Shown: positions 1,448-63,556 of the stretch, one piece after another | How positions within the stretch are numbered: position 1 is the stretch's first letter | How the letters are laid out: each line of letters begins with the position of its first letter | Assembly: GCA_900321715.1 (NCBI GenBank) | Contig: ONXC01000005.1 | Span: forward strand, 18,294 to 82,293 | Length of the DNA: 64,000 nt | Direction of reading: 5' to 3' | Origin: an uncultured Bacteroidales bacterium | GTDB taxonomy: Bacteria > Bacteroidota > Bacteroidia > Bacteroidales > UBA932 | Translations under genes and position numbers: made by a program | Notes under the pieces: model-generated | The model's input: the letters and a program-made list of their open reading frames with translations, nothing else | The model's database searches: none | Told to the model about the DNA's origin: nothing

Positions 1448-3880
1448 TCAGTTTTCATTTGTTATGTCAATGGTTGTTGTAGTCGGTTTGAGTCCTGCAC
1501 TCCTGGCTTTCACCACCAGTTTCCCAGGCTCGTCAGCAGCCTGCAGGACCAGCAGGGTCTTCCCCATGAAAGCCTTACTGGAGAGACTCTGGTTGGGATT
1601 CCAGTCGAGGATGTCTCCATTCTCTACACCCACAAGTCGGTAGGGGCCGGAGACCTCATATTCTACGAGGTTGGAGGCTCCGGGGACGAGACGTCCGGCC
1701 GCATCCACGATATCCACGGTAAAGAATACTACGTCCCGCTGATTGGCGGACATGGTCTTTCTGGAAGGAGTGACACGGATTGCTGCCGGAGCACCGGCGG
1801 TGGAGACAGTCTCGGTCGCCACTTTCTTGCCGTTTCTGTAACCCACGGCTTTCAGCGTGCCTTTACGGTATTTCACGTTCCACAGAATCTGCAGGTTCTC
1901 CTGGTCGAAAGGCTTGCGGCCAAGGGACTTGCCGTCCTGGAACAGCTCGACCTCATCGCAGTTTGTCCACGCCACGACGGGAATCGTGACTCCCTCCATC
2001 CCCGGCCATGTCCAATGCGGCAGGAGATGTATCATGGGTTCGTCGGTCCACAGACTCTTGTAGAGGTAGTACGGGTCCTTCGGGAACCCGGCGAGGTCAA
2101 TAATGCCGTAATTGTTGGTGCGGGCATTATCACCCCAGGACTCGCCGAGATAGTCGAAGGCGGTCCATCTGAACTCCCCGATGAAATAAGGATATCTCAG
2201 GACCTGTTTCCACTCTTCGCGGCAGGTCGCCTTGCGGGGCTGATTGTCATAGCCGGATGCATAGCGAGGATCGAACTGGGTGAATATCTCCTCCTCGGTA
2301 TAGCTGTCGATGGGATAATAGTTGGCCCTGTCGGACGGCTTCACCGCCACCGAATCTATCCAGGGACGGACGCGGCCGATGGTGTTGTAAACGCCACGGG
2401 TAGCCCTCGTGTGGGGGATTTCGGTGCCTATGGATACCTTGGTCGGCTGATTTATATGGAACTTTTCGATATCTCCCCTGCCTTCACCGTTCATATTGAA
2501 ACCGGCTATATCGAGGTATTCTCCGAGCGCCCATGCCTGAGTGGTAGGGCGGGTCGGATCCAGTTCATGATAGGTACGCTGAATGAGGAGCTGGAGGTAC
2601 TGGTGGTTCTCCCACTTCCAGACCTCGTTGCCCTGACTCCACATAAATATGCAGGGGTGGTTACGGTCGCGCCTGATAAATTCGCGAAGGTCCCGCTCCC
2701 ACCAGTCAAGGAAATAGTAGGAATAATCATAGTCGGCCTTACCGTACCCTTTCCATTTGAACCATCCGTCCCAGGGCTCGTCCATGACGAGAAATCCCAT
2801 CTCGTCGCACATATCATAGAACTCGGGGGCGAAGGGGTGGTGCGTGGTCCTTATGGCGTTGCACCCCATGTCCTTCAGGATCAGAAGCCTGCGCCGAAGC
2901 ATATCCGGATAGACTGCAATCCCGGCAGGTTCATCGTCCTGATGGATGCAAACACCCTTGATGAGCATTTTCTCGCCGTTGAGTTTGAAACCCTCGTCCA
3001 CGGAGAATTCCAGTGTCCTGAATCCCAGAGGGGTACGGTAATCGTCCACCAGGACATCTCCGTCGTACACCTCAGTCAGGATGCTGTACATATTGGGAGA
3101 GTCCGGAGACCAAAGCTTCGGGGACGCGACACTCTGGGTGGTGGAGAACACCGTGGTCCCGAGTTCGGCCGTCTTCGAAGCGATACTGTGGGAAACGACG
3201 TTGCCGGAAGCGTCGATGACGCTGTTGAGAACGGACAACTGTGAAGCCGAGCCGCTTTCATTGACGATTTCGACATCCGTAGTCACTTCAGCGCTCCCTT
3301 CAGTGATGACAGGAGTCCTGACACAGGTTCCGTCTCCGGCCACGTGAATGGGAGAAGTAATCACGAGGTTTACGGGGCGGTAAATACCTGATCCCGTGTA
3401 CCATCGTGCAGACGGCTGGAGGCTGTTGTCCACCTTGACTTTTATCACATTGGTACCTTCATGGAGGAAGGGGGTGATGTCATAGCGAAGTGTGAGGTAA
3501 CCATTTGGGCGATAACCGACCTCGTGGCCGTTTACCCACACAGTGCTGTTCATACATACGCCATCGAAAACGATGTTGACCCTGCGGCCCTTCCAGTCGG
3601 GATTCCATTCGATGGTCCTGGCATACCAGCCGATGCCTACGGGAAGATAACCCTGCTGCTTGACTGCGGGATTGTCCTCGGAATACGGTCCTTCTATGCT
3701 GAAATCGTGAGGGATGTTGAGCTGTCTCCAGCCGGAGAAAGCCGCTGTCTCCCCCGCTTCGATGTCGCCTTTGTGGAAATACCAGCCGAAATCGAGATTT
3801 ACCGTCTCTCTGCGGGCCGCCTGCCCGGCGGCCTGAGATAGCAGCAGCAAAGATGCTAAAATAACTGTCAGTTTTTTCAT
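1448..3880 (-). CDS. GH2 family beta-galactosidase-like enzyme, periplasmic
   Basis: 810 residues with a cleavable signal peptide (first 20 residues, ending about AAGQA). The domain order is GH2: N-terminal jelly roll (about 25-180, with RPNGYLTLRYDIT), Ig-like domain (about 185-290), TIM barrel (about 295-600) and C-terminal Ig-like domains. The acid/base is Glu419 (WSQGNEVW) and the nucleophile Glu569 (YFIGEFRWTAFDYLGE). Length and architecture match beta-galactosidase/beta-glucuronidase-like GH2 members of Bacteroidales. It is first in a minus-strand operon with the GH43 gene and probably the truncated GH2. A TATCTTTG -7 element lies at 3919-3926. A long open frame on the opposite strand (1445-3244) is a shadow. 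Confidence 0.93.
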   Translation of the reverse strand: MKKLTVILASLLLLSQAAGQAARRETVNLDFGWYFHKGDIEAGETAAFSGWRQLNIPHDFSIEGPYSEDNPAVKQQGYLPVGIGWYARTIEWNPDWKGRRVNIVFDGVCMNSTVWVNGHEVGYRPNGYLTLRYDITPFLHEGTNVIKVKVDNSLQPSARWYTGSGIYRPVNLVITSPIHVAGDGTCVRTPVITEGSAEVTTDVEIVNESGSASQLSVLNSVIDASGNVVSHSIASKTAELGTTVFSTTQSVASPKLWSPDSPNMYSILTEVYDGDVLVDDYRTPLGFRTLEFSVDEGFKLNGEKMLIKGVCIHQDDEPAGIAVYPDMLRRRLLILKDMGCNAIRTTHHPFAPEFYDMCDEMGFLVMDEPWDGWFKWKGYGKADYDYSYYFLDWWERDLREFIRRDRNHPCIFMWSQGNEVWKWENHQYLQLLIQRTYHELDPTRPTTQAWALGEYLDIAGFNMNGEGRGDIEKFHINQPTKVSIGTEIPHTRATRGVYNTIGRVRPWIDSVAVKPSDRANYYPIDSYTEEEIFTQFDPRYASGYDNQPRKATCREEWKQVLRYPYFIGEFRWTAFDYLGESWGDNARTNNYGIIDLAGFPKDPYYLYKSLWTDEPMIHLLPHWTWPGMEGVTIPVVAWTNCDEVELFQDGKSLGRKPFDQENLQILWNVKYRKGTLKAVGYRNGKKVATETVSTAGAPAAIRVTPSRKTMSANQRDVVFFTVDIVDAAGRLVPGASNLVEYEVSGPYRLVGVENGDILDWNPNQSLSSKAFMGKTLLVLQAADEPGKLVVKARSAGLKPTTTTIDITNEN

Positions 3881-3918
3881 ATCGCAGGTTTTTGACTATA
3901 TAAAATCCCTTATGCTTT

Positions 3919-3926
3919 CAAAGATA
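3919..3926 (-). promoter_or_regulatory. -7 promoter element of the GH2/GH43 operon
   Basis: TATCTTTG on the minus strand, matching the Bacteroidetes TAnnTTTG consensus. It implies transcription starting near 3915, about 35 nt before the GH2 start codon. No exact TTTG -33 box was found at the usual distance. The upstream DNA is AT-rich and holds an ATTAATTGG word (3930-3938) also seen upstream of the Kelch regulator. Confidence 0.6.
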
Positions 3927-3959
3927 ATAATTAATTGGGGATTAATTAAAATAATACAC

Positions 3960-3967
3960 TATATTTG
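3960..3967 (+). promoter_or_regulatory. -7 promoter element of the GH172 gene
   Basis: TATATTTG, matching TAnnTTTG, with a TTG at 3935-3937 as a weak -33 box. The predicted start of transcription, near 3971, lies downstream of a possible GTG start at 3967. That rules out the GTG and supports the ATG at 3988. It is divergent from the GH2 promoter, and the two share an 85-bp AT-rich region. Confidence 0.6.
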
Positions 3968-3987
3968 TGCTAAATCGTATTAAGTCA

Positions 3988-6114: not shown

Positions 6115-6117
6115 AAA

Positions 6118-6141
6118 AAGGGCCGTGGATTCACGGCCCTT
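6118..6141. terminator. Bidirectional terminator between GH172 and SusD genes
   Basis: A perfect 10-bp stem (AAGGGCCGTG/CACGGCCCTT) with a GATT loop. On the minus strand it is followed by a run of T, so it ends the SusC-SusD transcript well. On the plus strand it lies directly after the GH172 stop but lacks a good T tract. Confidence 0.8.
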
Positions 6142-6148
6142 GTCATAA

Positions 6149-8071: not shown

Positions 8072-8090
8072 GATACTCTGTTTTTAAAGT

Positions 8091-11000
8091 TTAGAATCCA
8101 AGCTGCACTCCCATGGTCAGTGCTCTCTGTGTAGGGTAGGCGGCTACGCCTAAATGACCGAATTCGGGATCTATGATTTTGATTTTGTCAATGCAGAAGA
8201 TGTTATTTCCATTAATGAAAATGCGCAGGCTCTCAGCGCGGATCTTGCTGCAGACCTTCTTGCTGAAATTGTAGCCTAATTCAGCCGTCTTGAGTTTCAG
8301 GTATGATGCGTCGCGCATATACAAGGTGTTGACCGTAAAGTTGTTCGTGGTCTTGTTGGAATGCGCCACAGGATATTTCGCATTGGTGTTGTCGGCTCCT
8401 GGAATGAAGCGGTTGTCGAAATACTCGTGGTAAATGTTATAAGAAGGATAGGCAAGGGAGAACGGCCACATTCCCGTGCTGTCAAGCAATATGTTGGTAT
8501 TGCCGGCACCCGTGAAGTTGAGGGTAAGGTCAAATCCCTTGTAGGCGAACGTCATGCCAAATCCGTACATGATCTCCGGGATACGTCCAAGGCCGATGAA
8601 GCTGTAGTCATATGCGTTGATGACGTTGTCGCCGTTTAGGTCGGCATACCTGATATCACCTACGCCGTAGCTGTCGTCAAGTTCCTGCTTGGGGGCATTG
8701 TCAACTTCTTCCTGGGTTTGGAAAAGGCCGATGGCGGTAAGACCGTAAATCATGCCGGTAGAGCGCCCGCGGGTGTCCTGATAAGACCAGGTATGGTATG
8801 CGGTGTCGTCCTCCAGGACCTTGTTGCGGGCGAAGGTCATATTTGCGCGCAGGTTGTAATAGAAACCGCCGGCGGTGGTGTTTGAGAACTCGATGTTGGC
8901 ATCGAATCCACGGTTTTCCATGATGCCGATATTCGCCCAAGGGGTATCGCCCCACTGTGCGCCAAGGATATTGGGAATCTGGGCTCTCTTGATGAGGATA
9001 TTGTCACGATACTCATAGAAGTAGTCGGCGCTCAGTTTGAGCTTGCCCTTGAACATTTCAAGGTCAAACCCTACATCGGCCTTGCGGGAAACCTCCCATG
9101 TGGCTTTGGGAGAACCCATTGAAAGCTCTGCCGTTCCTCCGGTTGGTGTCTGGCTGTTGCCAAGGAGATACGGGTTGGCGTGCATGTTGACCGTTGACAT
9201 GTAGTAGAAGCGCTCTGCGGAATTGGCGTCATTGCCCACAAGACCGTAGGACCCCCTGATTTTCAAGTGATTGATAGGGTTGTTTGCTCCCCAGAATTTC
9301 TCTCTTGAGGGCACCCAGCCGGCAGAGATGGCCGGGAAGAAACCGTAACGCAGGCCTTTTGCGAAGTTCTCCGAACCATTGTATCCGCAGTTGAACTCTA
9401 TCAGGTATCTCATGTCATATGAATAGTTGAGACGTCCTGCGAATCCCTGACGGCGGTGAGGGAGACGTGCGGTAGAGTTACCGGCGGTAAGATCCACGTA
9501 ATCACGGCGGTTGAACATGGCAAGCGCGCCTACGGAATGCTTGTTGAAGGTCCTGTTGTAATTAAGCCTTACGTCGTAGTAGATAGCCCTGTTTGAAACC
9601 TGGGAGAAACTGAATGACATGGGCTGCTCCTCGAAGATGATATTGTATTTCCCTTCTCCGGTGACAGTGTCATAACCCAGGAACTGTTTGGTGTCCGGCA
9701 CCTTTCGGCGGAAGGCCTCATTATAATTATAATAGTCAAATGACAAGTTTGCATTGAGGGACAGGCCGGAAGTTATGAGCCTGCTGAGGTCCCAGTTGAG
9801 GCTGGCGTTTGCCTGGGTGGTGACGCGGAATTGATCGGCATAACCATTGTTGGTGGCAAGGCTCCAGGGAGACCTTTGTTCATAGGAGGTGGCGCGTCCT
9901 CCGAGTGAGCCGTCAGGGTTTACGACGGGATATGCAAGGGGGGATGTGATCTTCAGTGAATTGAAGATGTCTCCTGCGGGGGTTCCGGGATAGATTCTGT
10001 GCTCCATTATCTGGGAAAGACCCAGGGCAAGGGAGATGTCCCTTGTTACGTTGATATCCACGTTGGAGCGGAAGAAGTATCGCTGGGAAAGGGAGTTTGT
10101 CCTGTAGTTGTATTGAGGGTCTTCCTTGAGCAGGCCGTCCTGTGATGAGAATCCGAAGTTCACATAGTATCTTACAACTTCATTACCTCCGGAGACGGAG
10201 AGGTTGTTCATGGTCTGGAACGCATTCTTTTTCAGAATCATATTTGTCCAGTCATTGTTTGGATACATGTATGGGTCTGAGCCGTCACGGAAAGACTCTA
10301 TTTCTTCGTCTGACCACGGAATGATGTTGCCGTCCGTGGCGCAGGCCTCGTTCATGAGGGTGGCAAAATCTCCGGCATTGATGAAATTGTCAAATCTGAG
10401 TCCGTGAAGGTTGGTAGCCTCAAGCCTAAGTGTGATCTTGGGCTTACCCATGCTTCCTTTCCTTGTGTTGATAAGGATAACGCCGTTAGCACCGCGCATA
10501 CCATATACAGCCGTTGCAGAGGCGTCCTTGAGGACGGAGAAAGATTCAATGTCGCTTGCATCCACAAGATTGATGTCTCGCTGGACACCATCTACAAGAA
10601 CAAGGGGCGAGGCGGAAAGCCAGGTTCCAAGACCGCGGATAAGAAGCGTGGCGCCGTCATATCCGGGTTCTCCGCTTGTCTGGCGGGAGACTAGTCCTGG
10701 GACAACGCCGCCCAGGGCGTTGGAAAGATTGGGCGTTGCCTGATGTCTGAGCTCTTTTGCGTCCACCGTGGTAAGGGCTCCGGTGATTGTAGCCTTCTTC
10801 TGCGTTCCATAGCCGATTACTACAGCGTCTTCAAGGGAAGCGGTATCCTCTTCAAGAAAGATGTCTATGACTTTGCGCTTGGAGACCTTGATCACCTGCT
10901 CCTTGAAGCCGATGGAAGATGTGACTATCTCACATTCCTCGTTGTTCACACCAAGGACGAAATAACCGAAGGCGTCGGTTATGGTTCCGATGTTGGTAGC

Positions 11001-11159
11001 CTTCTGCATAACCGCCACACCTTCAAGCGGTTCCTTGCTTACGGCGTCATAGACATGTCCTGTGACCGTTACCGTTTTTCTGCTGGAGTTCTGGGCGACG
11101 AGCGACAGACAGCAGGCAAAAGTCAACAGTACTGATGTAATCGTCTTAAATCTTTTCAT
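8091..11159 (-). CDS. SusC/RagA-family TonB-dependent outer-membrane transporter
   Basis: 1022 residues with a signal peptide (MKRFKTITSVLLTFACCLSL). An N-terminal carboxypeptidase-regulatory-like Ig domain (about 28-110, VTGHVYDAVSKEPLEGVAV) is followed by the plug with VIGYGTQKKATITGAL and the signature VLKDASATAVYGMRGANG. The 22-stranded barrel then ends in a typical terminal strand (LTMGVQLGF). It imports oligosaccharides with its SusD partner, powered by TonB/ExbBD, which are not in this window. It is the first gene of the minus-strand pair, with a well-formed promoter at 11200-11231. The nearest regulators are LacI (18364) and the AraC-type regulator (25271). Confidence 0.95.
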   Translation of the reverse strand: MKRFKTITSVLLTFACCLSLVAQNSSRKTVTVTGHVYDAVSKEPLEGVAVMQKATNIGTITDAFGYFVLGVNNEECEIVTSSIGFKEQVIKVSKRKVIDIFLEEDTASLEDAVVIGYGTQKKATITGALTTVDAKELRHQATPNLSNALGGVVPGLVSRQTSGEPGYDGATLLIRGLGTWLSASPLVLVDGVQRDINLVDASDIESFSVLKDASATAVYGMRGANGVILINTRKGSMGKPKITLRLEATNLHGLRFDNFINAGDFATLMNEACATDGNIIPWSDEEIESFRDGSDPYMYPNNDWTNMILKKNAFQTMNNLSVSGGNEVVRYYVNFGFSSQDGLLKEDPQYNYRTNSLSQRYFFRSNVDINVTRDISLALGLSQIMEHRIYPGTPAGDIFNSLKITSPLAYPVVNPDGSLGGRATSYEQRSPWSLATNNGYADQFRVTTQANASLNWDLSRLITSGLSLNANLSFDYYNYNEAFRRKVPDTKQFLGYDTVTGEGKYNIIFEEQPMSFSFSQVSNRAIYYDVRLNYNRTFNKHSVGALAMFNRRDYVDLTAGNSTARLPHRRQGFAGRLNYSYDMRYLIEFNCGYNGSENFAKGLRYGFFPAISAGWVPSREKFWGANNPINHLKIRGSYGLVGNDANSAERFYYMSTVNMHANPYLLGNSQTPTGGTAELSMGSPKATWEVSRKADVGFDLEMFKGKLKLSADYFYEYRDNILIKRAQIPNILGAQWGDTPWANIGIMENRGFDANIEFSNTTAGGFYYNLRANMTFARNKVLEDDTAYHTWSYQDTRGRSTGMIYGLTAIGLFQTQEEVDNAPKQELDDSYGVGDIRYADLNGDNVINAYDYSFIGLGRIPEIMYGFGMTFAYKGFDLTLNFTGAGNTNILLDSTGMWPFSLAYPSYNIYHEYFDNRFIPGADNTNAKYPVAHSNKTTNNFTVNTLYMRDASYLKLKTAELGYNFSKKVCSKIRAESLRIFINGNNIFCIDKIKIIDPEFGHLGVAAYPTQRALTMGVQLGF

Positions 11160-11199
11160 ACTAATAAATGTTTGTAATTCATGCCGATAAGAATTTCAA

Positions 11200-11231
11200 C
11201 AAAGATATATAAACGTTTTAGCAAAAACAAA
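11200..11231 (-). promoter_or_regulatory. Promoter of SusC-SusD operon
   Basis: On the minus strand, TTTG (11228-11231), a 20-base spacer and TATCTTTG (11200-11207) closely match the Bacteroidetes -33/-7 consensus. Predicted start near 11196, leaving a leader of about 37 nt. A TTTTGCTAAAA word (reverse strand of 11216-11226) lies between the two boxes, where a bound repressor would block polymerase. Confidence 0.75.
11216..11226 (-). repeat. Operator-like 11-mer, copy 1
   Basis: TTTTGCTAAAA on the minus strand, a near-palindrome lying inside the SusC promoter between -33 and -7. An exact copy is on the plus strand at 11364-11374, next to the opposite promoter. The arrangement suggests a shared transcription-factor site, but which regulator binds is not known. 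Confidence 0.45.
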
Positions 11232-11363
11232 GAAATAATTTTTATTTGTTAGTTTTTATATCGAAAAACAATAAAAACCCATCGTTTTAAGGATTCTTGG
11301 AGGCGTTTTTTAAAGCTTTGGGAACCGCAATTTGTCAGAAAAAATAAATAATGTGCATAAAAG

Positions 11364-11374
11364 TTTTGCTAAAA
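11364..11374 (+). repeat. Operator-like 11-mer, copy 2
   Basis: TTTTGCTAAAA on the plus strand, ending 4 bp upstream of the -33 box (11379-11382) of the fimbrillin-like gene. It is the exact inverted partner of 11216-11226, about 150 bp away. Upstream placement would fit an activator or a looping site here. Confidence 0.45.
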
Positions 11375-11378
11375 TGAT

Positions 11379-11409
11379 TTTGCAATCTGATTTTGATTCT
11401 ATATCTTTG
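11379..11409 (+). promoter_or_regulatory. Promoter of fimbrillin-like lipoprotein gene
   Basis: TTTG (11379-11382), a 19-base spacer and TATCTTTG (11402-11409): an exact match to the Bacteroidetes consensus. Predicted start near 11413, giving a leader of about 75 nt, longer than most others in the window. Confidence 0.8.
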
Positions 11410-11488
11410 TGGAAAATTGGAATACTATTAACGTGATACTGAAACAAGAAAATCAATCAAATATTCATTATTTCTAACACTAACAAAA

Positions 11489-13786
11489 ATGAAAACAAGA
11501 ACACTTTTCATCCTTGCGGCGATCGCCATCCCGCTGGTCTCTTGTCAAAAGCCGGCAAACGACAATACTCCTGCCACGCCGGACTATCAGGAGATTACCT
11601 TCAATGTGAAGGCTGCATCAGTTGAAGGCCTGGATCTGGGCTTCAGCGCAGGTGAGTCCATCTCCATCTTTGATGGTAAGGCCAATCAGAAGTTCACGGC
11701 AACTTCCGCCACAGCTATCAAGGGAACGGCCAATGCAAAAGCAGAGGCATACGCGGCTCTTTATCCTTACAACGCAGAATACAAGCGCACATCCGGTAAA
11801 GTGCCCGTAACAATTCCTTCCGCCCAGAGTCCTGACGCCGGAAAGATTGCAGCTAACGCCAACTTCCAGGTTGCATATGCCGCTTCTGCAACGGAAGAAC
11901 TGAAATTCTCCTTTATGCCGGCAATTCTGAAGATGAACATTGCTGCAGATAAGAAAATCGTTTCTGTAACTATCTTTGCCGACGGTAACGAGTCCCTTAC
12001 CGGTACCTGCAACCTTGAACTTGCCGCCACTCCCAAATGCGAGAAAGTGGGTGAAGGTGCAAATAAGGTCACAATTACCGGCACCGACATCAAGGGCGTT
12101 AATTATGCTGCCGTATTACCTGGAAACGTTTCCAGTTATACTGTTTCCTTAACTGCTGCGGATGACTATCATGCCGATGTAAAGGTTTCCGGTGCCGAGC
12201 TTAAGAGCGGTGCCATTACAGACCTCGGTACATTCAGCTCATTTAACTGGGTCGAGCCCGTCAACCCCAATCCTACAAACGTTGTTGGTGCTGTCATCAT
12301 GAAGGCTTCTTTCGAGACCGCCGACTTCAACCTTATCGGAGATGGTGGATTTGAGGATTACCCCAGAGACGGATGGAAGTGGGAAAATCCCAATCACGTT
12401 GAATCCCTTATCGATGGACATAATTCCCCGAAGGCTCTCCGTATGGAAAGGACCAGCCCGGATGGTATGACAAACCTTCAGCAGGCTGTCGTCTATAGGG
12501 AAACTACGGAGGTTGGCGCTGGCTGGTGGGTTATTGAATTCGACGCCCGTGTATCAAAAGACAGCAATAAAGATTTCTATTCCGGATTCTCCTTCAATGA
12601 CGATTTAGGTTGCTGGTACAGGGAAGTTACCGGAGGCGTAAAGGCTCCTTCACCGGAAGATGTCAAGGAGAACGGAAGATGGTTCTTCAATGATGAACAG
12701 TGGCATCACTACGTATTTGATGATACCAACTATCCTACCCAGGCATGGGGCTTCGTTCACCTCGGCATGTGGGGAGATCCCGATGCCAATCCCTGCTGGT
12801 CTGAATATGACAACGTGGTGGTTTATCCCAAGGAGCTCGACATCCGTGGTATCTCAACGGCTCCCAAGGAAGCAAAGATCCTTGGATCAATTACCAATGC
12901 AACCTATGATCAGGTTGACGGCCTTGGCAAGATTGTGGCCTGGATGGATACTGACAATAAGGTCAAACTCGCGTTCTCAGACGTTGTTATAAACGGAACC
13001 CTTATTCCTACAGCTGTGGCAGAGACTGAGTCCACGGATCCCTCATCAATCCAGATCAGCAAGTTCTACAAGAGCGAAGGTGCCATTTCTGAGATCCTCC
13101 CTGTAGCGGAAGGTGAAATTGCCGTTGTCCCTGATGATGTCTTTGTCATGGATGGAAAGACATACATGCACTATTACGGTATGACTGAATTCGATCCCAA
13201 CTTCACGCTCAACTGGAAAACTGACAAATCGGGCTTCGTAGTTTCCGAAGACAATGGCAAAACCTGGGAAGCTGCTGCTAAAACCTGGGCAGCAAGTGCC
13301 TGGGCAGCCAATAATGACGGAAAATTCTCCAACGCTGCATTCGTAAACCGTGATGGTTATACCTATATGATTGGTTCACATGCAGGACGTGACAACTGGC
13401 TGTGGGGTAAATCTTATGCCGCCCGCGTTGCAGATGGCAAGGATGTCACAGACCCCGATGCCTATGACTATTTCAAGAACCCCGGCTGGACAGACGGTGG
13501 TGGAGAATGGGCAATCAGGTTCAACCAGCATCTCCTTATGGGAGACCGCGGAACCTATGACCTTATCTGGAATCCCAAGTTTGAGGTATACCAGCTGTTC
13601 TATCGTGCCGATGCCGCTGAGGGAATCGTTTATCGTGATTCCAAGGGCCCCGATGCAGATGGTAAGTGGAACTGGTCCGGCGCCAAACTCCTCACCAAGG
13701 ATGAAGATACCGGTGTTCTCGGAAGCATCTCGGTGCTTAAGGTTGAAGAAGATGGGTCTGTAATCTTTGTGGGCTCAATCCTCTAG
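11489..13786 (+). CDS. Multidomain surface lipoprotein: fimbrillin-like + carbohydrate-binding-like + DUF4185-like
   Basis: 765 residues. The lipobox is IPLVSC (Cys19). Residues about 30-260 look like a fimbrillin/Mfa-like beta-sandwich (ITFNVKAASVEGLDLGF, YAALYPYNAEYKR). Residues about 275-450 look like a carbohydrate-binding jelly roll (LIGDGGFEDYPRDGWKWE, aromatic-rich). Residues about 455-765 resemble DUF4185, a propeller-like enzyme-related fold (VMDGKTYMHYYG, FVVSEDNGKTWE). I see no certain catalytic residues. The protein is probably surface exposed and glycan-binding. It has its own strong promoter and a strong terminator, and is followed by a CotH-kinase gene. None of the GGCCGAT words common elsewhere occurs in this gene. 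Domain names are by resemblance, and the order is unusual. Confidence 0.7.
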   Translation: MKTRTLFILAAIAIPLVSCQKPANDNTPATPDYQEITFNVKAASVEGLDLGFSAGESISIFDGKANQKFTATSATAIKGTANAKAEAYAALYPYNAEYKRTSGKVPVTIPSAQSPDAGKIAANANFQVAYAASATEELKFSFMPAILKMNIAADKKIVSVTIFADGNESLTGTCNLELAATPKCEKVGEGANKVTITGTDIKGVNYAAVLPGNVSSYTVSLTAADDYHADVKVSGAELKSGAITDLGTFSSFNWVEPVNPNPTNVVGAVIMKASFETADFNLIGDGGFEDYPRDGWKWENPNHVESLIDGHNSPKALRMERTSPDGMTNLQQAVVYRETTEVGAGWWVIEFDARVSKDSNKDFYSGFSFNDDLGCWYREVTGGVKAPSPEDVKENGRWFFNDEQWHHYVFDDTNYPTQAWGFVHLGMWGDPDANPCWSEYDNVVVYPKELDIRGISTAPKEAKILGSITNATYDQVDGLGKIVAWMDTDNKVKLAFSDVVINGTLIPTAVAETESTDPSSIQISKFYKSEGAISEILPVAEGEIAVVPDDVFVMDGKTYMHYYGMTEFDPNFTLNWKTDKSGFVVSEDNGKTWEAAAKTWAASAWAANNDGKFSNAAFVNRDGYTYMIGSHAGRDNWLWGKSYAARVADGKDVTDPDAYDYFKNPGWTDGGGEWAIRFNQHLLMGDRGTYDLIWNPKFEVYQLFYRADAAEGIVYRDSKGPDADGKWNWSGAKLLTKDEDTGVLGSISVLKVEEDGSVIFVGSIL

Positions 13787-13797
13787 AAACTATCAGG

Positions 13798-13838
13798 AAA
13801 GTTGCGCAGGCGCATGCGCGCGTCTGCGCAACTTTTTT
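13798..13838 (+). terminator. Strong intrinsic terminator after the fimbrillin-like gene
   Basis: A 12-bp perfect stem (13798-13809 with 13824-13835, AAAGTTGCGCAG arm) encloses a loop containing the palindrome GCGCATGCGC, with T's from 13833 to 13838. The next gene starts only 7 nt later, so the CotH kinase must depend on read-through or on a weak promoter overlapping the T tract (TATATTTA-like sequence just before its ATG). Confidence 0.85.
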
Positions 13839-13844
13839 ATATTT

Positions 13845-15746
13845 ATGCTTCGTACTGTTCGTAAAATACTGACAGTTTTATTATCGGTTCTTGCGGCGCT
13901 ATCATGTGTCAGGAAAGATGAATTGGACAGTGGTCGCAATCCTTCTGCAAGACCATATAATTATACAAAACTGATTGACGCGGTCCAAGGCGGACTCTGG
14001 TATGAGAAAGCCGAAGACTTCGGTGATTACCTTGCTGTTTTCTTCGAGGACGGGACAGTTGTAAATATCCCCTACGACGAAGTAAAGACCATTGACGGAA
14101 ACATTTTCGATGAGCCTAAGATTACCCGGGATAAAAACAGCGGGACATGGCTCAATAACCTTGTAAGGACAGGCCTGTATTTTGAGACTGCGGAGGATTC
14201 TGAATCATATCCTATCTGTATCTGGTATAATAAGGATTGTGTCAAAATCTATCTCTGCAACGGTTCTGTAATAACCCGCGGCGGCAACCCTAAAGAGGTT
14301 TTCAAGTCCTTCTCCATCCTTTCATCCGACAACAGAAACCTTTCAAAGGATATTATATGTACCATTGCAAATGAGGAAATCAAGGGTACACGGCCGCAAT
14401 TCTTTGACAATCTTCTTTTCCGCCCTCGTTTTGAGATAAGCGCCAGCAGTGTTTCGGTAAATGGGGAGCTGCAGATCAGCGGAGAGTCTGTTCAGGATTT
14501 TTCCCAGCCAGTAGTTTATGACGTTAAGCTGTTTGACGGTACTTCCGTGTCTTATACCGTCACGCTGGAATGCTATGGGAAATTCCCTTCCGTTTATATC
14601 ACTACGGATAATAATCGGCCCGTAAATGACAAGGTGAATTACATCCCCGGATCAATCAGGGTGGAAGATCCGCTCAGGGAGCACTCTGACATAACTTGTT
14701 TTCAATCACGGATGAAAATCAGGGGAAGGGGTAACTCTACCTGGTCCTATTTCCCCAAAAAACCATATCGCATCAAACTTGATGAAAAGTCAGAAGTACT
14801 TGGCCTCAAGTCTGACAAAGACTGGATAGTCCTTGCCAATTACAATGACAAATCTCTTCTGCGCAATGCCGTTGCCTTTGAACTCTCCCGAATATGCGGT
14901 TTTTCGTGGACTCCAAGCTTCTATCCGGTAGAACTGTATTTCAATAATCTGTATATGGGGGTATACGATTTTGGGGAACACAAGGAAGTTGGCAAGAGTA
15001 AAGTGAATATAAACCCGGACGCCGGGGACGTGTATCTTGAGCTTGAGTGCTATCCCGATGAGCCGTACAATTTCTGGACATCAATGTCCGTACCTCTCAC
15101 ATATAAGGACCCTGACACCCCCAGCACGGAAGTGCGCATGGAGGTTGAGGGTTTCTTCCAGGCTTTTGAAACGGCTCTGCAGTCGGACTATTTTGCCGAT
15201 CCATACCGTGGATATGCCGCTTACATTGACATAAAGTCCTTCGTGGACAACTATATAATTCAGGAACTCACCAAAAACTTTGACGGGAATCTCCATAAAA
15301 GTACGTTCTTCTCCAAAAAGAAGGGAGGAAAACTGGAGTTCTGTCATGTGTGGGATTTCGACCTTTCCATGGGCAACTGCAGCTTCTTTGGAAACATCCC
15401 CGGCGGAAACGGTCCGGAAGGTTTTTATGTAAAGGACTACGGTTTCCAGGGGTATGGCTGGGGATGGTATTACCGTCTTTTCCAGGACCCCAATTTCCGC
15501 AAAAAGGTAAAGGATCGCTGGAACGAGCTAAAGCCCCAGTTGCAGACAATACCGGCTTTCATTGATGAAAAAGTCGCCTACCTTGATGAGGTTTCATACA
15601 ATAATTTCAAGAGGTGGAATATTCTGGGAACCAATGTTTGGTCACAGGTGGTTGTCACGGGCTCATATGAGGGGGAAATAGCTTATTTGAAAGACTTTTA
15701 CACAAAACGCCTGAAATGGCTTGACAAGGAAATAAATAAATGGTAA
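13845..15746 (+). CDS. CotH-family atypical kinase, lipoprotein
   Basis: 633 residues from the ATG at 13845. The longer frame from 13767 is rejected because it begins inside the preceding gene and lacks a signal. The lipobox is LAALSC. The first 260 residues or so form beta-rich domains of unclear family, with a repeated GLWYEKAEDFGDYLAVFF / GLYFETAEDSESYPICIW motif. Residues about 265-633 are a CotH kinase domain: KIRGRGNSTWSYFPKKPYRI, then Asp480 (NFDGNLHKSTFF) as likely catalytic Asp and Asp504/Asp506 (HVWDFDLSMGN) as likely metal ligands. Known CotH proteins phosphorylate spore-coat proteins on Ser in Bacillus. Here the lipobox puts the kinase outside the cytoplasm. The substrate is unknown; the adjacent fimbrillin-like protein is a candidate. 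Confidence 0.85.
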   Translation: MLRTVRKILTVLLSVLAALSCVRKDELDSGRNPSARPYNYTKLIDAVQGGLWYEKAEDFGDYLAVFFEDGTVVNIPYDEVKTIDGNIFDEPKITRDKNSGTWLNNLVRTGLYFETAEDSESYPICIWYNKDCVKIYLCNGSVITRGGNPKEVFKSFSILSSDNRNLSKDIICTIANEEIKGTRPQFFDNLLFRPRFEISASSVSVNGELQISGESVQDFSQPVVYDVKLFDGTSVSYTVTLECYGKFPSVYITTDNNRPVNDKVNYIPGSIRVEDPLREHSDITCFQSRMKIRGRGNSTWSYFPKKPYRIKLDEKSEVLGLKSDKDWIVLANYNDKSLLRNAVAFELSRICGFSWTPSFYPVELYFNNLYMGVYDFGEHKEVGKSKVNINPDAGDVYLELECYPDEPYNFWTSMSVPLTYKDPDTPSTEVRMEVEGFFQAFETALQSDYFADPYRGYAAYIDIKSFVDNYIIQELTKNFDGNLHKSTFFSKKKGGKLEFCHVWDFDLSMGNCSFFGNIPGGNGPEGFYVKDYGFQGYGWGWYYRLFQDPNFRKKVKDRWNELKPQLQTIPAFIDEKVAYLDEVSYNNFKRWNILGTNVWSQVVVTGSYEGEIAYLKDFYTKRLKWLDKEINKW

Positions 15747-15765
15747 ACTAACATAACGGCTTCAT

Positions 15766-18306
15766 ATGAAGAAACTACTCTCCTCCCTGCTGATTCTCTG
15801 TGTCTCTACATCGTTGATATCGGCACACAATTACAACGGGTCATACACAGGTCATGAGCTTGATCATATCGCTTTCCCTGTCGGGGGAATCGGCACAGGA
15901 ATGTTTTGCTTCGAAGGAACCGGAGCCATATCAAACATGTCGCTCCGCCATTATCCTCAGCTTTTCCATGAGCCGTGCACCTTTGCGGCCATTTGCGTGA
16001 AAGGGCTTGAGAACGGCACCAAAGTCCTTGAGGCCAACGTCCCGGACTATAAGAAATTCGGCCGATTGGAGGGTGGTATGGGAGTTGGTGGTACCACCTG
16101 GGGGCTCCCGCGTTTTGACAATGGAATATTCACCCCTCATTTCCCCTTTGCAACTCTCGAGCTCTGGGATAAGGATCTTCCGCTTAAGGTCTCAATAACT
16201 GTCTGGAATCCTTTCATTCCAAACGATGAGGATGAATCAGGACTCCCTGTGGCGGGATTTGAGTACACTTTCACCAATAGTTCAAGCAAGCCCGTAGAGG
16301 CGGTGTTCTCTTTCAATACAAGAAACTTTGTCTTTACATCGCATGAGGCTCTTTCCTGCGTTGAGGAGATGAAAAACGGGTTTGTCCTGCGTCAGGATCC
16401 TACCCCCAGGAATCCCGAGTGGGAAGGGCGCTTTGCCATCTACACAGACGATGATTCCACAGAATGTGACTACTGCTGGTTCCGCGGCGGATGGTTTGAT
16501 CCTCTCACAATGGCCTGGAACAAGGCGGCAAGCGGAGAAATAGTCCCCAATGGAACAGGAGACGGCGCACCTGGAGGTTCCCTCTATGTGCCACTTAGCC
16601 TTAAGCCCGGTGAGAGCAAGACAGTCAAGCTCCGTATGGCCTGGTATTTCCCTACCTCATTCCATCGTATCGGCCCAGAGCCCAATTGCCCCGAGGATTA
16701 TGGCTCCTGCTACAATCCCGACAATTTCAAGGATCTTCCGGAGCGCTATGAGCCCTATTACAGCCGTCGTTTCAAAAATCTGGAAGAAGTGACTGAATAC
16801 TGGGACGCCAACTATGACAGGCTGAAAGATGCAAGTCAGAAGTTCTCGGAGACATTCTTTGACAGTACCCTGCCAGCGGAAGTCCTTGAGGCTGTAAGTG
16901 CCAATCTTACCATACTTAAATCCACCACTGTCATGCGTCAGCACGACGGCAAATACTGGGTTTGGGAAGGCAGTGGAGACAACTGGGGCAGTTGCCACGG
17001 CTCCTGTGAGCATGTGTGGAACTATGCTCAGGCCGTGCCCCATCTCTTCCCCCGTCTGGAGCGTTCCCTCAGAGAGACAGAGTATTATATTGACCAGAAC
17101 ACGGAAGGTCATCAGGCATTCCGCGCCAATCTTCCTATCCGCCCCCTGCGCCATGACTTCCATGCTGCCTCTGACGGCCAGCTGGGCGGTATAATAAAGG
17201 CTTACCGCGAGTGGCGCATCAGCGGAGACAATAAGTGGATTGCCGATATGTTTCCCCAGATCAGGCAGAGTATGGATTATTGTATCCGTACCTGGGATCC
17301 ACGTCATGTGGGTGCTCTGGAGGAGCCTCATCACAATACTTACGACATTGAGTTCTGGGGGCCGGACGGAATGTGTACCAGCATATACACATCTGCGCTC
17401 AATTGCTTTGTAAAGATGGCAAAAGACCTCAAGGCCCTTAAGAAGAAGGAGATCAACTTCTATGAAGAGCTCCTTGAAAAGAGTGTCAGATTCATGGAAA
17501 CAGAGCTGTGGAACGGAGAATACTTCTACCAGCAGGTAAGGTGGGAGGGCCTGAATGCCCCCTCGCCGATGGAAGTCCAGTCTTTCCAGAGCACATACAG
17601 CCCCGAGGCCCAGAAGATACTCCTTGAAGAAGGTCCCAAATACCAATATGGAAAGGGATGTATCTCTGACGGCGTCCTTGGATGTTTCCTGACAACTTTC
17701 GCGGGTCTTGAAGAACCTCTTGACCATGAAAAAGTCAGAAGTCATCTCCTATCCGTTTACAAATACAATCTCAAGCACGACTTACGTGACCACTCCAACC
17801 CTCAACGTCCGGGTTATGCGCTAGGAAATGAAGGAGGACTCCTTCTATGTTCCTGGCCGTATGGAGATAAACCCAACCTTCCCTTTGTTTACAGTGACGA
17901 GGTCTGGACCGGCATTGAATATCAGGTGGCGGCTCATCTCATAGCGGAAGGATGTGTGGAAGAAGGGCTTGATATCGTCCGCACCTGCCGAAACCGTTAT
18001 GACGGAACCCTGCGCAATCCTTTCAATGAATATGAATGCGGATCATGGTATGGACGCGCCCTTTCAAGTTATGCACTTCTGGAAGCCCTTACCGGAGCAA
18101 GATATGATGCCGTAGAGAAGACCCTCCATATCAACTCCAAGGTTGGAGACAACTTCCGGTCCTTCCTTTCCACCGCAACCGGTTACGGAACCGTGGGTCT
18201 CAAAGACGGTATTCCATTTATTGAAACTGTAAGCGGAAACATTGAAGTTAAACAGTTCATAATCAACGGAAAAATTTATAAAAACCAGTCGGCCAAACGG
18301 CGTTAG
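15766..18306 (+). CDS. GH116 family beta-glycosidase (GBA2-like), periplasmic
   Basis: 846 residues with a signal peptide (MKKLLSSLLILCVSTSLISA). The N-terminal GH116N beta-sandwich (about 25-330) opens with IAFPVGGIGTGMFCFEGTG. The C-terminal DUF608 (alpha/alpha)6 barrel (about 370-835) carries the predicted nucleophile Glu529 (HNTYDIEFWG) and acid/base Asp711 (YSDEVWTGIEY). Characterised GH116 enzymes are retaining beta-glucosidases, beta-xylosidases or N-acetylglucosaminidases; human GBA2 cleaves glucosylceramide. It follows the CotH gene by 19 nt and is followed by a LacI regulator. Length is normal and all key regions look intact. Confidence 0.9.
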   Translation: MKKLLSSLLILCVSTSLISAHNYNGSYTGHELDHIAFPVGGIGTGMFCFEGTGAISNMSLRHYPQLFHEPCTFAAICVKGLENGTKVLEANVPDYKKFGRLEGGMGVGGTTWGLPRFDNGIFTPHFPFATLELWDKDLPLKVSITVWNPFIPNDEDESGLPVAGFEYTFTNSSSKPVEAVFSFNTRNFVFTSHEALSCVEEMKNGFVLRQDPTPRNPEWEGRFAIYTDDDSTECDYCWFRGGWFDPLTMAWNKAASGEIVPNGTGDGAPGGSLYVPLSLKPGESKTVKLRMAWYFPTSFHRIGPEPNCPEDYGSCYNPDNFKDLPERYEPYYSRRFKNLEEVTEYWDANYDRLKDASQKFSETFFDSTLPAEVLEAVSANLTILKSTTVMRQHDGKYWVWEGSGDNWGSCHGSCEHVWNYAQAVPHLFPRLERSLRETEYYIDQNTEGHQAFRANLPIRPLRHDFHAASDGQLGGIIKAYREWRISGDNKWIADMFPQIRQSMDYCIRTWDPRHVGALEEPHHNTYDIEFWGPDGMCTSIYTSALNCFVKMAKDLKALKKKEINFYEELLEKSVRFMETELWNGEYFYQQVRWEGLNAPSPMEVQSFQSTYSPEAQKILLEEGPKYQYGKGCISDGVLGCFLTTFAGLEEPLDHEKVRSHLLSVYKYNLKHDLRDHSNPQRPGYALGNEGGLLLCSWPYGDKPNLPFVYSDEVWTGIEYQVAAHLIAEGCVEEGLDIVRTCRNRYDGTLRNPFNEYECGSWYGRALSSYALLEALTGARYDAVEKTLHINSKVGDNFRSFLSTATGYGTVGLKDGIPFIETVSGNIEVKQFIINGKIYKNQSAKRR

Positions 18307-18326
18307 ACCGTGCCTGGAGTACTCTG

Positions 18327-18359: not shown

Positions 18360-18363
18360 CATC

Positions 18364-25271: not shown

Positions 25272-25277
25272 TTTTGG

Positions 25278-25285: not shown

Positions 25286-25296
25286 AGAAAAATGAA

Positions 25297-25325: not shown

Positions 25326-25350
25326 GAATTCGCCTTGAAAAACTGTTTCA

Positions 25351-45800: not shown

Positions 45801-45801
45801 T

Positions 45802-55974: not shown

Positions 55975-57069
55975 ATGAAATTCAGGACCTACGTGCTGTT
56001 TTGGATACTCTTCGGGGTGGTGGCCGATACAATTATCGGCCTTACGCTCCTGAAGGGCGCGCCGTGGTGGGCCATTGCAGTGATGGCGGCTCCTACGCTG
56101 GCCGCGGGGCTGTGCCTGCCGCTTATCGGCACGGGAAAATGGTACGCAGACTCCCTGAGGGTTTTTTCTTACCTCATCTTTATCTTTGAACTGCCAAAGT
56201 TCCTGGTGGCTCTCATCGGCCAGGCTTCTCCGGTAGCGGGCATTGCCGTGGGCGCCGCCGTGAGCCTGTTTTTCATTACGCTCATATTCTATGTGACACG
56301 GCATCTTCAGGTGAAGGAAACAGTCCTTGAAATTGAAGGCTTCCCCTCAGAACCCCTCAGGGTGTGCCAGATAGGGGATTTTCACCTTGGATCCTTTGGG
56401 ACAAAGAGCAAGTACATAAGCCGTATCATAGATACTGTGAATGCCTGCAATCCGGATGTAATCCTGTTTGTCGGGGACCTTGTGAACTTTGAGGCAAAGG
56501 AGGCTTTCCCGTACAGGGAGGTGCTGGCGCGGCTTCAGGCGCCTGTGTACGCCATCCTCGGGAACCACGACTTCCTCCTTCACGGCCCGCATGATTCCAA
56601 TGAGGAAGGCCGATTAAAAGATATGGCCGCCCTGGAAGCCTTTGAGAAGTCCCTGGGATGGAGAGTCCTCCGCAATGAAAGCGTAGAGCTCCGCCCGGGA
56701 GTGGTCCTTGTGGGAGTAGACAATATCACAAAGAACCCCTACTTCCGTAAAGTTGGAGGAGACCTTGGGAAGGCGCTGGAGGGTGTGGAGGAATCGGCCT
56801 TCAAAATCCTTCTCTCCCATGATCCCACCCATTGGCGCATGGAAGTGCTGCCCAAAACTGACATTCACCTTACCCTTTCCGGCCATACGCACGGCCTCAA
56901 ATACAAGCTCACGGGCCTTCTTCCCAGCCACTGGCGGCTGCATGAGTCCGGCGGGCTGTATGAGGATGGAGCTCAGAAACTATACGTAACCCCCGGCCTT
57001 GGAAGCGCCTTTGCGTTCAGGCTGGGAGGCTACCCAAACGTAGATATATTAACTCTAAAACCTAGATAA
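55975..57069 (+). CDS. Membrane-anchored metallophosphoesterase
   Basis: 364 residues. The N-terminal 110 residues or so hold about four membrane helices. The remainder is a calcineurin-like phosphoesterase domain with the full metal-binding series: GDFHLGS, GDLVNF, GNHDF, SHDPTH and SGHTHG. The fold is like YkuE/LpxH-type enzymes, though LpxH itself lacks such helices. The likely role is hydrolysis of a phospholipid-related phosphodiester or monoester near the inner membrane. It is two nt upstream of a diacylglycerol-kinase-like gene and in series with an acyltransferase, which supports a lipid role. Confidence 0.88.
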   Translation: MKFRTYVLFWILFGVVADTIIGLTLLKGAPWWAIAVMAAPTLAAGLCLPLIGTGKWYADSLRVFSYLIFIFELPKFLVALIGQASPVAGIAVGAAVSLFFITLIFYVTRHLQVKETVLEIEGFPSEPLRVCQIGDFHLGSFGTKSKYISRIIDTVNACNPDVILFVGDLVNFEAKEAFPYREVLARLQAPVYAILGNHDFLLHGPHDSNEEGRLKDMAALEAFEKSLGWRVLRNESVELRPGVVLVGVDNITKNPYFRKVGGDLGKALEGVEESAFKILLSHDPTHWRMEVLPKTDIHLTLSGHTHGLKYKLTGLLPSHWRLHESGGLYEDGAQKLYVTPGLGSAFAFRLGGYPNVDILTLKPR

Positions 57070-62330: not shown

Positions 62331-63556
62331 GGCGGATAGTCCTCATAATGGCCCTTGCCCTGGTTTCCGCCGGGGCTTTTGCCCAATATGTGCCCACAAG
62401 GGAAAACCTTGAGGCCCGCGCGGCATTCAAGGAGCACAGGCTGGGGATTTTCCTTCACTGGGGCATATACAGCGCCTATGCGCAAGGGGAGTGGTACCTC
62501 TCCACGCATAAGCTGGATTCGGTGGCCTATATAGCTGCAGCCGGGGGCTTCTGTCCTTCAAAGTTTGATGCCGATGCCTGGGCCCAGGCCTTTGCCGATG
62601 CCGGGGCGGGTTATGTCACCCTCACCTCCCGTCACCACGACGGTTTTTCCATGTTCGGAACCCGGGAGAGCGGCTTCAACATCGTGGACGGCACGCCCTT
62701 CGGCCGGGACCCCCTTGCGGAACTTACCGCCGCCGTGAAGGCACGCGGGATGAGGATGCAGTACTATTATTCCCTCATAGACTGGATAAGGCCGGATTAT
62801 CCCAAAGGTGACAGCGGCATTCAGAAAGACTCCCTGAAGGCATCCTACGGCCATTATCTGGAGTTTGAAAAGGCCCAGATCCGGGAACTTATGGCACATA
62901 AGCCGGGGGCTCTATGGTTTGACGGCCTGTGGGACCAGCCGGAAGGCTTCAACTGGAGAGTTACGGAACTTTATGACCTTATCCATTCCATAGACCCTTC
63001 GTGCCTTATCGGCAACAATCACCATAAGGCTCCGCTTCCGGGGGAGGACTTCCAGATGTTCGAGCGTGACCTTCCCGGAGAGAACCAGGGCGGGTTCAGT
63101 GCCAATTCCCCTGTATCGGCCCTGCCGCTGGAGACCTGCGAAACCATGAATTACGCCTGGGGCTACAGGGTTGAGGACCAGTGGTACAAGCCTCTGAAGG
63201 AGCTGGTGGCCCTGCTGGTGAAAGCGGTTTCAAAGGACGCCAACCTCCTTCTTAATATCGGCCCTATGGCATCAGGAGAACTTCCTGCGCCGGCCCTTGA
63301 GCGCCTGAAGGAACTTGGCGCCTGGATGAAGGAGCACGGCCATACCGTCAACGGCTGCGGATCCACGGGCATTCCTCAGGAGCCCTGGGGCGTCACTACG
63401 CGGGACGCCCATCACATCTACGTCCATATCCTGGAGCCATCGGCCCTTCCCGCAGATAATATAATTAAGGTAAGCCTTGGCAGCCGCACTTTCTACCGTA
63501 AAGTGCCTTCAGACCTTGATCCGGTAGATACTATTCTGGAAATTTTGGTCAATTAA
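62327..63556 (+). CDS. GH29 alpha-L-fucosidase
   Basis: 409 residues with a signal peptide (about 1-19). The GH29 TIM barrel shows FLHWGIYSAYAQGEWYLS, VTLTSRHHDGFSMF and the nucleophile Asp199 (ALWFDGLWDQ). A short C-terminal part follows in place of a full beta-sandwich, so the protein is compact for the family. It removes alpha-L-fucose from glycans in the periplasm. It is translationally coupled to DUF3298. It ends 90 nt before the rpsL start. Confidence 0.93.
   Translation: MRRIVLIMALALVSAGAFAQYVPTRENLEARAAFKEHRLGIFLHWGIYSAYAQGEWYLSTHKLDSVAYIAAAGGFCPSKFDADAWAQAFADAGAGYVTLTSRHHDGFSMFGTRESGFNIVDGTPFGRDPLAELTAAVKARGMRMQYYYSLIDWIRPDYPKGDSGIQKDSLKASYGHYLEFEKAQIRELMAHKPGALWFDGLWDQPEGFNWRVTELYDLIHSIDPSCLIGNNHHKAPLPGEDFQMFERDLPGENQGGFSANSPVSALPLETCETMNYAWGYRVEDQWYKPLKELVALLVKAVSKDANLLLNIGPMASGELPAPALERLKELGAWMKEHGHTVNGCGSTGIPQEPWGVTTRDAHHIYVHILEPSALPADNIIKVSLGSRTFYRKVPSDLDPVDTILEILVN

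What the first reader, a model, noticed from the sequence alone, without database searches (positions are those of the whole stretch)
2374..63445. Highly iterated heptamer GGCCGAT/ATCGGCC across the window
Reading by eye I find about 86 copies (about 46 GGCCGAT and 40 ATCGGCC on the plus strand); equal base use predicts about 8 on both strands together. They occur in both orientations in roughly equal number, in core genes and polysaccharide loci alike, and in several reading frames. Examples are G-GCC-GAT (Ala-Asp), a-TCG-GCC (Ser-Ala), ATC-GGC-C (Ile-Gly) and GGC-CGA-T (Gly-Arg: 16060, 22163, 26041, 38780, 56608). ATCGGCC outnumbers ATCGGCA, ATCGGCT and ATCGGCG (about 12, 6 and 4 by eye). 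The full palindrome ATCGGCCGAT occurs at 29531 and 38875. This looks like selection on DNA rather than codon choice: a repair, methylation, uptake or nucleoid signal analogous to cyanobacterial HIP1. I saw no copy between 9082 and 14613, which includes the whole 11489 gene.
Basis: seen in the sequence. Interest (0 to 1): 0.72.

Follow-up and report, generated by a model that had tools for sequence, protein, structure and literature searches.

The report
Iterated DNA word in Cryptobacteroides
One group of Bacteroidales bacteria carries thousands of copies of a seven-letter DNA word in its chromosomes, mostly made at silent positions of genes, which suggests that an unknown protein of the cell reads this word.

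Summary
The window holds 47 GGCCGAT and 40 ATCGGCC; the genome (genus Cryptobacteroides, Bacteroidales) holds 3279, against 226 for the reversed word. Codon use does not explain it: 653 copies in ORFs against 91 after synonymous permutation, with excess in five of six frame and orientation classes and in non-coding DNA. Serine (TCN) between A and GCC is TCG in 208 of 216 cases, against 8.5% elsewhere. The effective word is nearer KGCCGAT. Orientation shows no skew and spacing is random. Against a relative 5% apart the word is better conserved than the average heptamer, while positions turn over between species. The ten high genomes placed on gene trees group together, with one low genome among them. 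By hand count 76 of 400 genus genomes carry 0.45 per kb or more.

A MmeI-type gene that fits the word exists here but does not track it.

Best explanation, inferred: a protein reads the finished word in double-stranded DNA, most likely for DNA uptake or recombination.

The parts
2374..63445 (.). The set of 87 copies of GGCCGAT/ATCGGCC in the window
   Evidence: GGCCGAT starts: 2374, 4311, 4401, 8591, 8726, 16060, 19095, 19987, 20859, 22163, 24809, 26041, 27264, 27531, 29534, 30200, 30560, 31721, 32284, 36902, 36983, 37562, 38171, 38780, 38878, 39617, 41145, 43136, 46623, 47388, 47795, 48389, 49058, 50942, 52374, 53225, 54718, 54818, 56022, 56608, 57422, 57908, 58033, 61700, 62075, 62138, 62150. 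ATCGGCC starts: 6881, 7253, 7883, 9075, 14614, 16669, 19368, 19615, 21458, 21677, 25453, 25605, 26808, 26949, 29531, 30648, 34042, 37353, 37475, 38875, 39354, 43722, 44639, 47786, 47981, 49307, 49982, 52959, 54095, 54572, 55412, 56035, 56215, 56793, 57110, 61380, 61821, 63115, 63257, 63439.
29531..29540 (.). Overlapping inverted pair ATCGGCCGAT
38875..38884 (.). Overlapping inverted pair ATCGGCCGAT
16060..16066 (+). Copy in the Gly-Arg frame (GGC CGA T), which uses the rare codon CGA
   Evidence: over the sample CGA is 3.4% of CGN arginines not preceded by GGC, but 44 of 74 between GGC and T
22163..22169 (+). Copy in the Gly-Arg frame
26041..26047 (+). Copy in the Gly-Arg frame
38780..38786 (+). 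Copy in the Gly-Arg frame of the plus-strand ORF 38399-39214
   Evidence: an overlapping antisense ORF 38327-39283 is longer
56608..56614 (+). Copy in the Gly-Arg frame
9082..14613 (.). Stretch without a copy (part of a SusC-like ORF, a DUF4185 ORF and the start of the next ORF), GC 0.48
   Evidence: long gaps are not more frequent than random over the sample

Best explanation
The word KGCCGAT (strongest as GGCCGAT in this genome) is an asymmetric iterated DNA word of one Cryptobacteroides group, at about 0.5 to 1.6 copies per kb in the genomes placed on trees. It is kept by a force acting on the finished word in double-stranded DNA, in either orientation, through synonymous and non-coding positions. 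Shown here: DNA level, genome-wide, grouped on gene trees, better conserved than the same codons elsewhere, positions turning over, random placement, and differences at word sites of many substitution kinds (direction not determined). Inferred: a DNA-binding protein of the group reads it, and fragments with the word are favoured in DNA uptake or recombination between relatives, so that the word spreads by biased replacement, as has been proposed for uptake sequences of Haemophilus and Neisseria. I put the DNA-level part at about 0.95 and the uptake or recombination role at about 0.4.
For: Genome count 3279 against 226 control. Permutation test 653 against 91, maximum 107 in 50 runs. Codon context: TCG 208 of 216 against 8.5%; GAT 279 of 310 after G|GCC against 36%; CGA 44 of 74 against 3.4%; weak or absent in samples of 20 outgroup genomes (10 of 24, 21 of 51, 0 of 19). 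Strict non-coding DNA: 15 against 1.8 expected. Conservation against a relative at 94.9% identity: 0.884 against 0.742 for all heptamers; codons with the third base in the word 573 of 601 identical against 526 expected. DNA within 100 bp of a word is slightly more divergent than DNA further away (0.941 against 0.952), as reported for Neisseria DUS (passages of PMC2397512). Low density in the GC-poor stretch around the MmeI-type gene: 3 in 15.8 kb, about 25 at the mean density. Gene trees. Sites differ between species.
Against: No receptor or competence gene was searched for. No inverted word pairs under 60 bp lie in intergenic DNA (0; all 49 lie in ORFs; only 40 kb of non-coding DNA was seen), whereas Neisseria uses such pairs as terminators. 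One orientation is not clearly favoured in reading frames (315 against 338), and gene ends hold fewer copies, not more (50 and 51 in the end deciles against 66 to 85), unlike the bias reported for uptake sequences (abstract of PMC2346458). Density outside long ORFs is lower than inside (1.20 against 1.74 per kb). Identity inside words of either genome is 0.950, not above the 0.952 of distant DNA (this counts gained and lost words). Absence from acquired DNA would fit any slow process. The codon contexts are much weaker in G038, G054 and G057.
Confidence: 0.4

Rival explanations
1. HIP1-type process: an orphan methyltransferase marks the word and methyl-directed repair favours strands that carry it, so copies accumulate as a by-product (Elhai's model for cyanobacteria).
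For: Density near one per kb and no strand skew resemble HIP1 (PMC4390886: abstract, section 2.2 and the first part of section 3.4).
Against: Of ten high genomes (G000, G003, G005, G019, G028, G037, G038, G051, G054, G057), matches at E 0.001 or better: PF00145 in 2, PF01555 in 4 (one below cut-off), PF02384 in 3, PF02086 in 6, PF07669 in 8 (several weak; it also matches 34 of the 51 others), PF20466 in 1. None is in all ten. G003 and G037, 92% and 95% complete, have matches to PF00145 alone. The assemblies are incomplete, and a methyltransferase outside these families, or different ones in different species, is not excluded.
Confidence: 0.2
2. Chi-like site: the word regulates the AddAB or RecBCD nuclease of this group during break repair.
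For: Short, GC-rich, asymmetric word within the size of known Chi sites (recalled).
Against: No orientation skew between stretches (chi-square 17.9 on 24 df, p 0.81) and no relation to GC skew, whereas Chi is usually skewed (recalled). Density is far above E. coli Chi (recalled). The nuclease genes were not compared.
Confidence: 0.15
3. A nucleoid or chromosome-organising protein binds the word.
For: Even use of both orientations, genes and non-coding DNA.
Against: Spacing is random rather than regular (cv 1.06, random 0.98 to 1.21). Segregation signals such as KOPS are strand-skewed (recalled).
Confidence: 0.13
4. It is the target of the MmeI-type restriction-modification enzyme found in this genome (L158:7809-10592, 927 aa).
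For: The form of the word fits targets of that family such as GCCGAG of NmeAIII (recalled). Full-length MmeI match.
Against: The family's target domain occurs in 3 of 61 genomes; only G000 is high, G034 and G049 are low. The stretch around the gene is nearly free of the word.
Confidence: 0.04
5. Base-specific mutation or codon and codon-pair preference produces the word.
For: A Markov model of order 5 gives 681 of 749.
Against: That model is trained on the word's own sub-words. Synonymous permutation gives 91 of 653; the excess is also in non-coding DNA. Differences at word sites between relatives include transitions and transversions of many types (not polarised). Codons shift toward TCG, CGA, GAT and ATC mainly where they finish the word or a near form of it.
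Confidence: 0.04

Closest known systems
HIP1 (GCGATCGC) of cyanobacteria and its alternates
   Same: Thousands of copies per genome, about one every several hundred bases to a kilobase, varying between related genomes
   Different: HIP1 is palindromic and HIP words generally go with methyltransferases of matching specificity (PMC4390886, abstract and sections named in the report); this word is asymmetric and no shared methyltransferase family was found
DNA uptake sequences of Neisseria (DUS) and Pasteurellaceae (USS)
   Same: Asymmetric, of the order of 1 per kb, in both orientations, lineage-specific, conserved, scarce in acquired DNA (here one stretch only)
   Different: This word is shorter, has no intergenic inverted pairs in the sample and no clear orientation preference in genes; uptake is untested; phylum Bacteroidota, for which the listings of my searches showed no report
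Chi recombination hotspots
   Same: Short asymmetric over-represented words (recalled)
   Different: This word is much denser and without strand skew
MmeI-family (type IIL) restriction-modification targets
   Same: Form of the word (recalled)
   Different: Gene presence does not track the word

Membership tests
HIP1-type iterated words | Strong genome-wide over-representation at about one per kb | tested here: met
   about 1.6 per kb, 10- to 11-fold
HIP1-type iterated words | Palindromic word | tested here: not met
   asymmetric; ATCGGCCGAT at 13 places in 471 kb
HIP1-type iterated words | Methyltransferase specific for the word present in the genomes | tested here: inconclusive
   none of six families is in all ten high genomes; specificities, other families and missing genome parts not tested
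HIP1-type iterated words | Maintained by selection | tested here: met
   conservation above expectation (biased fixation would look the same)
DUS/USS uptake sequences | Preferential uptake of DNA carrying the word | not testable with these tools
   Needs a culture
DUS/USS uptake sequences | More conserved than comparable sequence | tested here: met
   identity inside words of either genome is 0.950, flanks 0.941, distant DNA 0.952
DUS/USS uptake sequences | Rare in recently acquired DNA | tested here: inconclusive
   One GC-poor stretch, 3 copies in 15.8 kb; acquisition itself not shown
DUS/USS uptake sequences | Inverted pairs as intergenic terminators (Neisseria) | tested here: not met
   0 intergenic inverted pairs under 60 bp in 40 kb of non-coding DNA
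DUS/USS uptake sequences | One orientation favoured in reading frames; in Pasteurellaceae a bias to gene ends | tested here: not met
DUS/USS uptake sequences | Competence machinery and a word receptor | not tested
Chi sites | Strand skew relative to replication | tested here: not met
   using stretches and GC skew as the guide
Chi sites | Recognition by AddAB or RecBCD | not testable with these tools
   Biochemistry needed
MmeI-family restriction-modification target | Enzyme present wherever the word is iterated | tested here: not met
   3 of 61 genomes, one of them high

The most novel reading that the evidence does not exclude
The word is a self-recognition signal for DNA uptake or recombination in Bacteroidota, independent of DNA methylation, and has driven itself through the genomes of roughly a fifth of the sampled species of one genus by synonymous substitution.
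Probability: 0.3. Interest if true: 0.82.

Novelty: new variant of a known kind. Interest (0 to 1): 0.62.

Why it matters
Iterated words such as HIP1 and DUS shape genomes, and the force behind HIP1 is still debated. Here the trait ranges from background to about 14 times the control count inside one genus with hundreds of sequenced species, so its origin could be placed on a tree and matched with gene gain. If it is an uptake signal it would point to a route of DNA exchange in this group. In any case codon-based analyses of these genomes must allow for it.

Tried and rejected
Vsr or cytosine-deamination bias: suggested by depleted GGCTGAT (26 against 79), rejected because PF00145 is found in only 2 of ten high genomes and differences at word sites include many base changes (not polarised). 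MmeI-type target: gene found, then rejected on distribution. PF01555, PF02384, PF02086 and PF07669 methyltransferases: none in all ten. Replication-strand signals: no skew. DUS-type terminators: none seen. Protein-level cause: the main dipeptides are not enriched (Ala-Asp 1.04, Ile-Gly 1.02). A different dominant word in the low genomes: by eye nothing as strong and frequent in same-genus samples of at most 20 kb, of which only the top three words per length were printed. Literature: the listings showed no report of this word or of an uptake sequence in Bacteroidota in the open-access library; of the listed papers I opened only those cited, so this is not proof of absence.

The first GyrA and ParC trees used antisense frames for some rows and were discarded; one search replaces them.
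Full report
Where it is. The window is a stretch of contig 14 of a 2.04 Mb, 29-contig, 80.6% complete genome, G000. Its genus includes Candidatus Cryptobacteroides: the genomes of C. onthequi and C. choladohippi, reached through loci, show the same size and counts as G012 and G238 of the same genus, an identification by matching numbers. The best hit of the one protein search in named genomes is Tb.RUG.384 (L022, genome G101), about 95% identical over 81.8 kb. The window holds SusC-like and glycosidase genes and some ordinary metabolic genes.

The observation. The window has 47 GGCCGAT and 40 ATCGGCC. The whole genome has 1662 and 1617, against 100 and 126 for the reversed word. In a first sample of 425 kb the word has z 84 against an order-2 model, the highest of the heptamers. 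In the enlarged sample (471 kb) the excess is 11.3, 9.6, 11.3, 5.8, 2.5 and 1.1-fold for Markov orders 0 to 5.

DNA, not codons. In 303 ORFs, chosen by length so that a few may be antisense, the word occurs 653 times; 50 permutations of synonymous codons within genes give a mean of 91 and a maximum of 107. Frame by frame: a|TCG|GCC 199 against 6.2, GGC|CGA|T 43 against 2.1, g|GCC|GAT 265 against 40, ATC|GGC|C 131 against 37, ATCGGCC in its remaining frame 8 against 1.3, and GGCCGAT in its remaining frame 7 against 4.8, which is no clear excess. Ala-Asp, Ile-Gly, Ser-Ala and Gly-Arg are not notably enriched (1.02 to 1.09). Codon context is sharp: TCG is 208 of 216 TCN serines between A and GCC, and 8.5% where GCC does not follow; GAT is 279 of 310 after G|GCC and 141 of 168 after T|GCC, against 36% after codons other than GCC; CGA is 44 of 74 between GGC and T against 3.4% where GGC does not precede. 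In samples of 20 outgroup genomes the same contexts show GAT 21 of 51 (0.41 elsewhere), TCG 10 of 24 (0.22 elsewhere, so a mild rise) and CGA 0 of 19. In the group itself the contexts are strong in G101, G019, G028 and mostly G037, and weak in G038, G054 and G057, where counts are small. These numbers are conditional on the neighbouring codons; by dipeptide the word fills 280 of 711 Ala-Asp, 208 of 809 Ser-Ala, 139 of 658 Ile-Gly and 45 of 547 Gly-Arg, against 21 of 520, 10 of 558, 17 of 492 and 0 of 445 in the outgroups. Strict non-coding DNA (17.5 kb) has 15 copies against 1.8 expected; outgroups 2 against 1.7. The effective word in G000 is KGCCGAT, with G stronger than T.

Distribution in the genome. 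Orientation shows no more stretch-to-stretch variation than chance (chi-square 17.9, 24 df, p 0.81) and no relation to GC skew; spacing is random (cv 1.06, random 0.98 to 1.21); 6 gaps above 3 kb, random median 6. Use along and against genes is 315 and 338. Close inverted pairs (under 60 bp) all lie in ORFs, 49 of 49. The GC-poor stretch around the MmeI-type gene has 3 copies in 15.8 kb.

Distribution among genomes. In 60 further genomes of the genus the count runs from 103 (G031) to 3333 (G019), and none of 40 genomes from other families of the order exceeds 0.30 per kb. Of 80 loci from named genomes that encode a relative of one window protein, only L022 exceeds 0.5 per kb. RpoB was found in 40 of 61 genomes; I fetched 38, and 37 rows entered the tree (G027 lacked the signature used). 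There the seven genomes at 0.48 per kb or more form one clade with support 100/100, and the other 30 are at 0.30 or less. In a GyrA tree of 50 rows eight high genomes group (100/99), joined by G003 (0.49) and G034 (0.29) at 100/100; outside it G014 reaches 0.41. A ParC tree of 20 rows places G028 in the same group, with G003 and G034 beside it and G040 (0.35) next outside. These are single-gene trees without a true root. In 400 genomes of the genus I count, by hand from the table, 40 at 1.0 per kb or more and 36 between 0.45 and 1.0 (sizes are rounded); only ten high genomes were placed on trees. In samples of nine other genomes (G101, G019, G028, G037, G038, G054, G057, G051, G005) ATCGGCC is 2.2- to 8.4-fold over an order-1 model, although in G051 and G057 ATCGGCA is stronger; one 20 kb sample of G003 gave 0.7, and the 20 outgroups 0.9.

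Evolution. Over 81.8 kb aligned with G101 at 94.9% identity, the word is conserved in 0.884 of cases against 0.742 for all heptamers, 15th of 326 listed frequent words, each listed with its complement. Codons whose third base lies in the word, with the amino acid unchanged, are identical in 573 of 601 against 526 expected from the same codons elsewhere (z 5.9, but each pair is counted from both genomes, so the true value is lower). Identity is 0.950 inside words of either genome, 0.941 within 100 bp and 0.952 further away; the first figure includes gained and lost words by construction. Against the colinear region of L023 (74.7% identity) 0 of 25 copies are shared, and only 7 of 25 are one step away. 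In rpoB, gyrA and parC of the group most sites are not shared by most species, and the alternatives differ by many kinds of change. Density is thus kept while places turn over. A mutation process of one base type is unlikely to do this; selection or biased fixation of the finished word can. The direction of the changes was not determined.

The form of the word suggested an MmeI-type or BREX enzyme (note, written after the gene was identified), and G000 has an MmeI-type gene. But its target domain is found in only 3 of 61 genomes, one of them high, so it is not the common cause. Five other methyltransferase families also fail to be common to the ten high genomes: PF00145 in 2, PF01555 in 4, PF02384 in 3, PF02086 in 6 and PF07669 in 8 of 10 at E 0.001 or better, the last with weak matches and in 34 of 51 others. 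Incomplete assemblies and other families remain a gap. No competence, AddAB or nucleoid gene was examined.

Comparison. HIP1 shares the density and lineage variation, but is palindromic and goes with matching methyltransferases (PMC4390886: outline and abstract, section 2.2, first part of section 3.4). A later paper cites statistical support for selection on HIP1 (passages of PMC6604393). Uptake sequences share asymmetry, density, conservation and scarcity in acquired DNA (passages of PMC2397512) and a proposed growth by point changes (passages of PMC1939737), but this word lacks their intergenic pairs and orientation bias (abstract of PMC2346458). It fits no family on all tested features, so I do not file it as a member of any.

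Verdict. A real, strong, lineage-grouped DNA word with an unknown reader. Uptake or recombination is my leading mechanism (0.4), by analogy and by exclusion rather than by direct evidence.

Noticed in passing
L158:7809-10592 (G000 contig 20): Full-length 927-aa MmeI-family (type IIL) restriction-modification enzyme in a GC-poor stretch nearly free of the iterated word, near DUF2442 and DUF6577/nucleotidyltransferase ORFs.
   Followed up: yes
window 1-19450 against 21210-53674: Identity to Tb.RUG.384 is 99.2 to 99.4% in the aligned pieces up to 19450 (except 535 bp at 96.8%; 1360-3889 not aligned) and 92 to 96% beyond 21210, as if a recent exchange ended there; 19451-21209 has no counterpart in that contig.
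   Followed up: partly
window 22561-40303 and L023: The polysaccharide locus is colinear with one in G009 (RUG14270), which falls outside the high group in the RpoB, GyrA and ParC trees; possible transfer of the locus. The copy in G009 has one word in the aligned part against 25 in the window.
   Followed up: partly
G000 sample (window and L002-L021): GATC-containing words are depleted (TGATCA 92 against 267 expected, GATCC 716 against 1278), as if GATC were avoided.
   Followed up: no
L159:4152-13999 (G057 contig 32): Cluster of a DrmD/SNF2-like helicase, a DUF1156 protein and a DUF499 protein, resembling anti-phage systems; the NCBIfam scores are below the curated cut-offs.
   Followed up: no
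L141 (G094, another family of the order): GACCGTCC occurs 23 times in 20 kb against 0.8 expected; another iterated word or a local repeat.
   Followed up: no
window 9082-14613: 5.5 kb without a copy of the word over part of a SusC-like ORF and a DUF4185 ORF; GC 0.48.
   Followed up: partly
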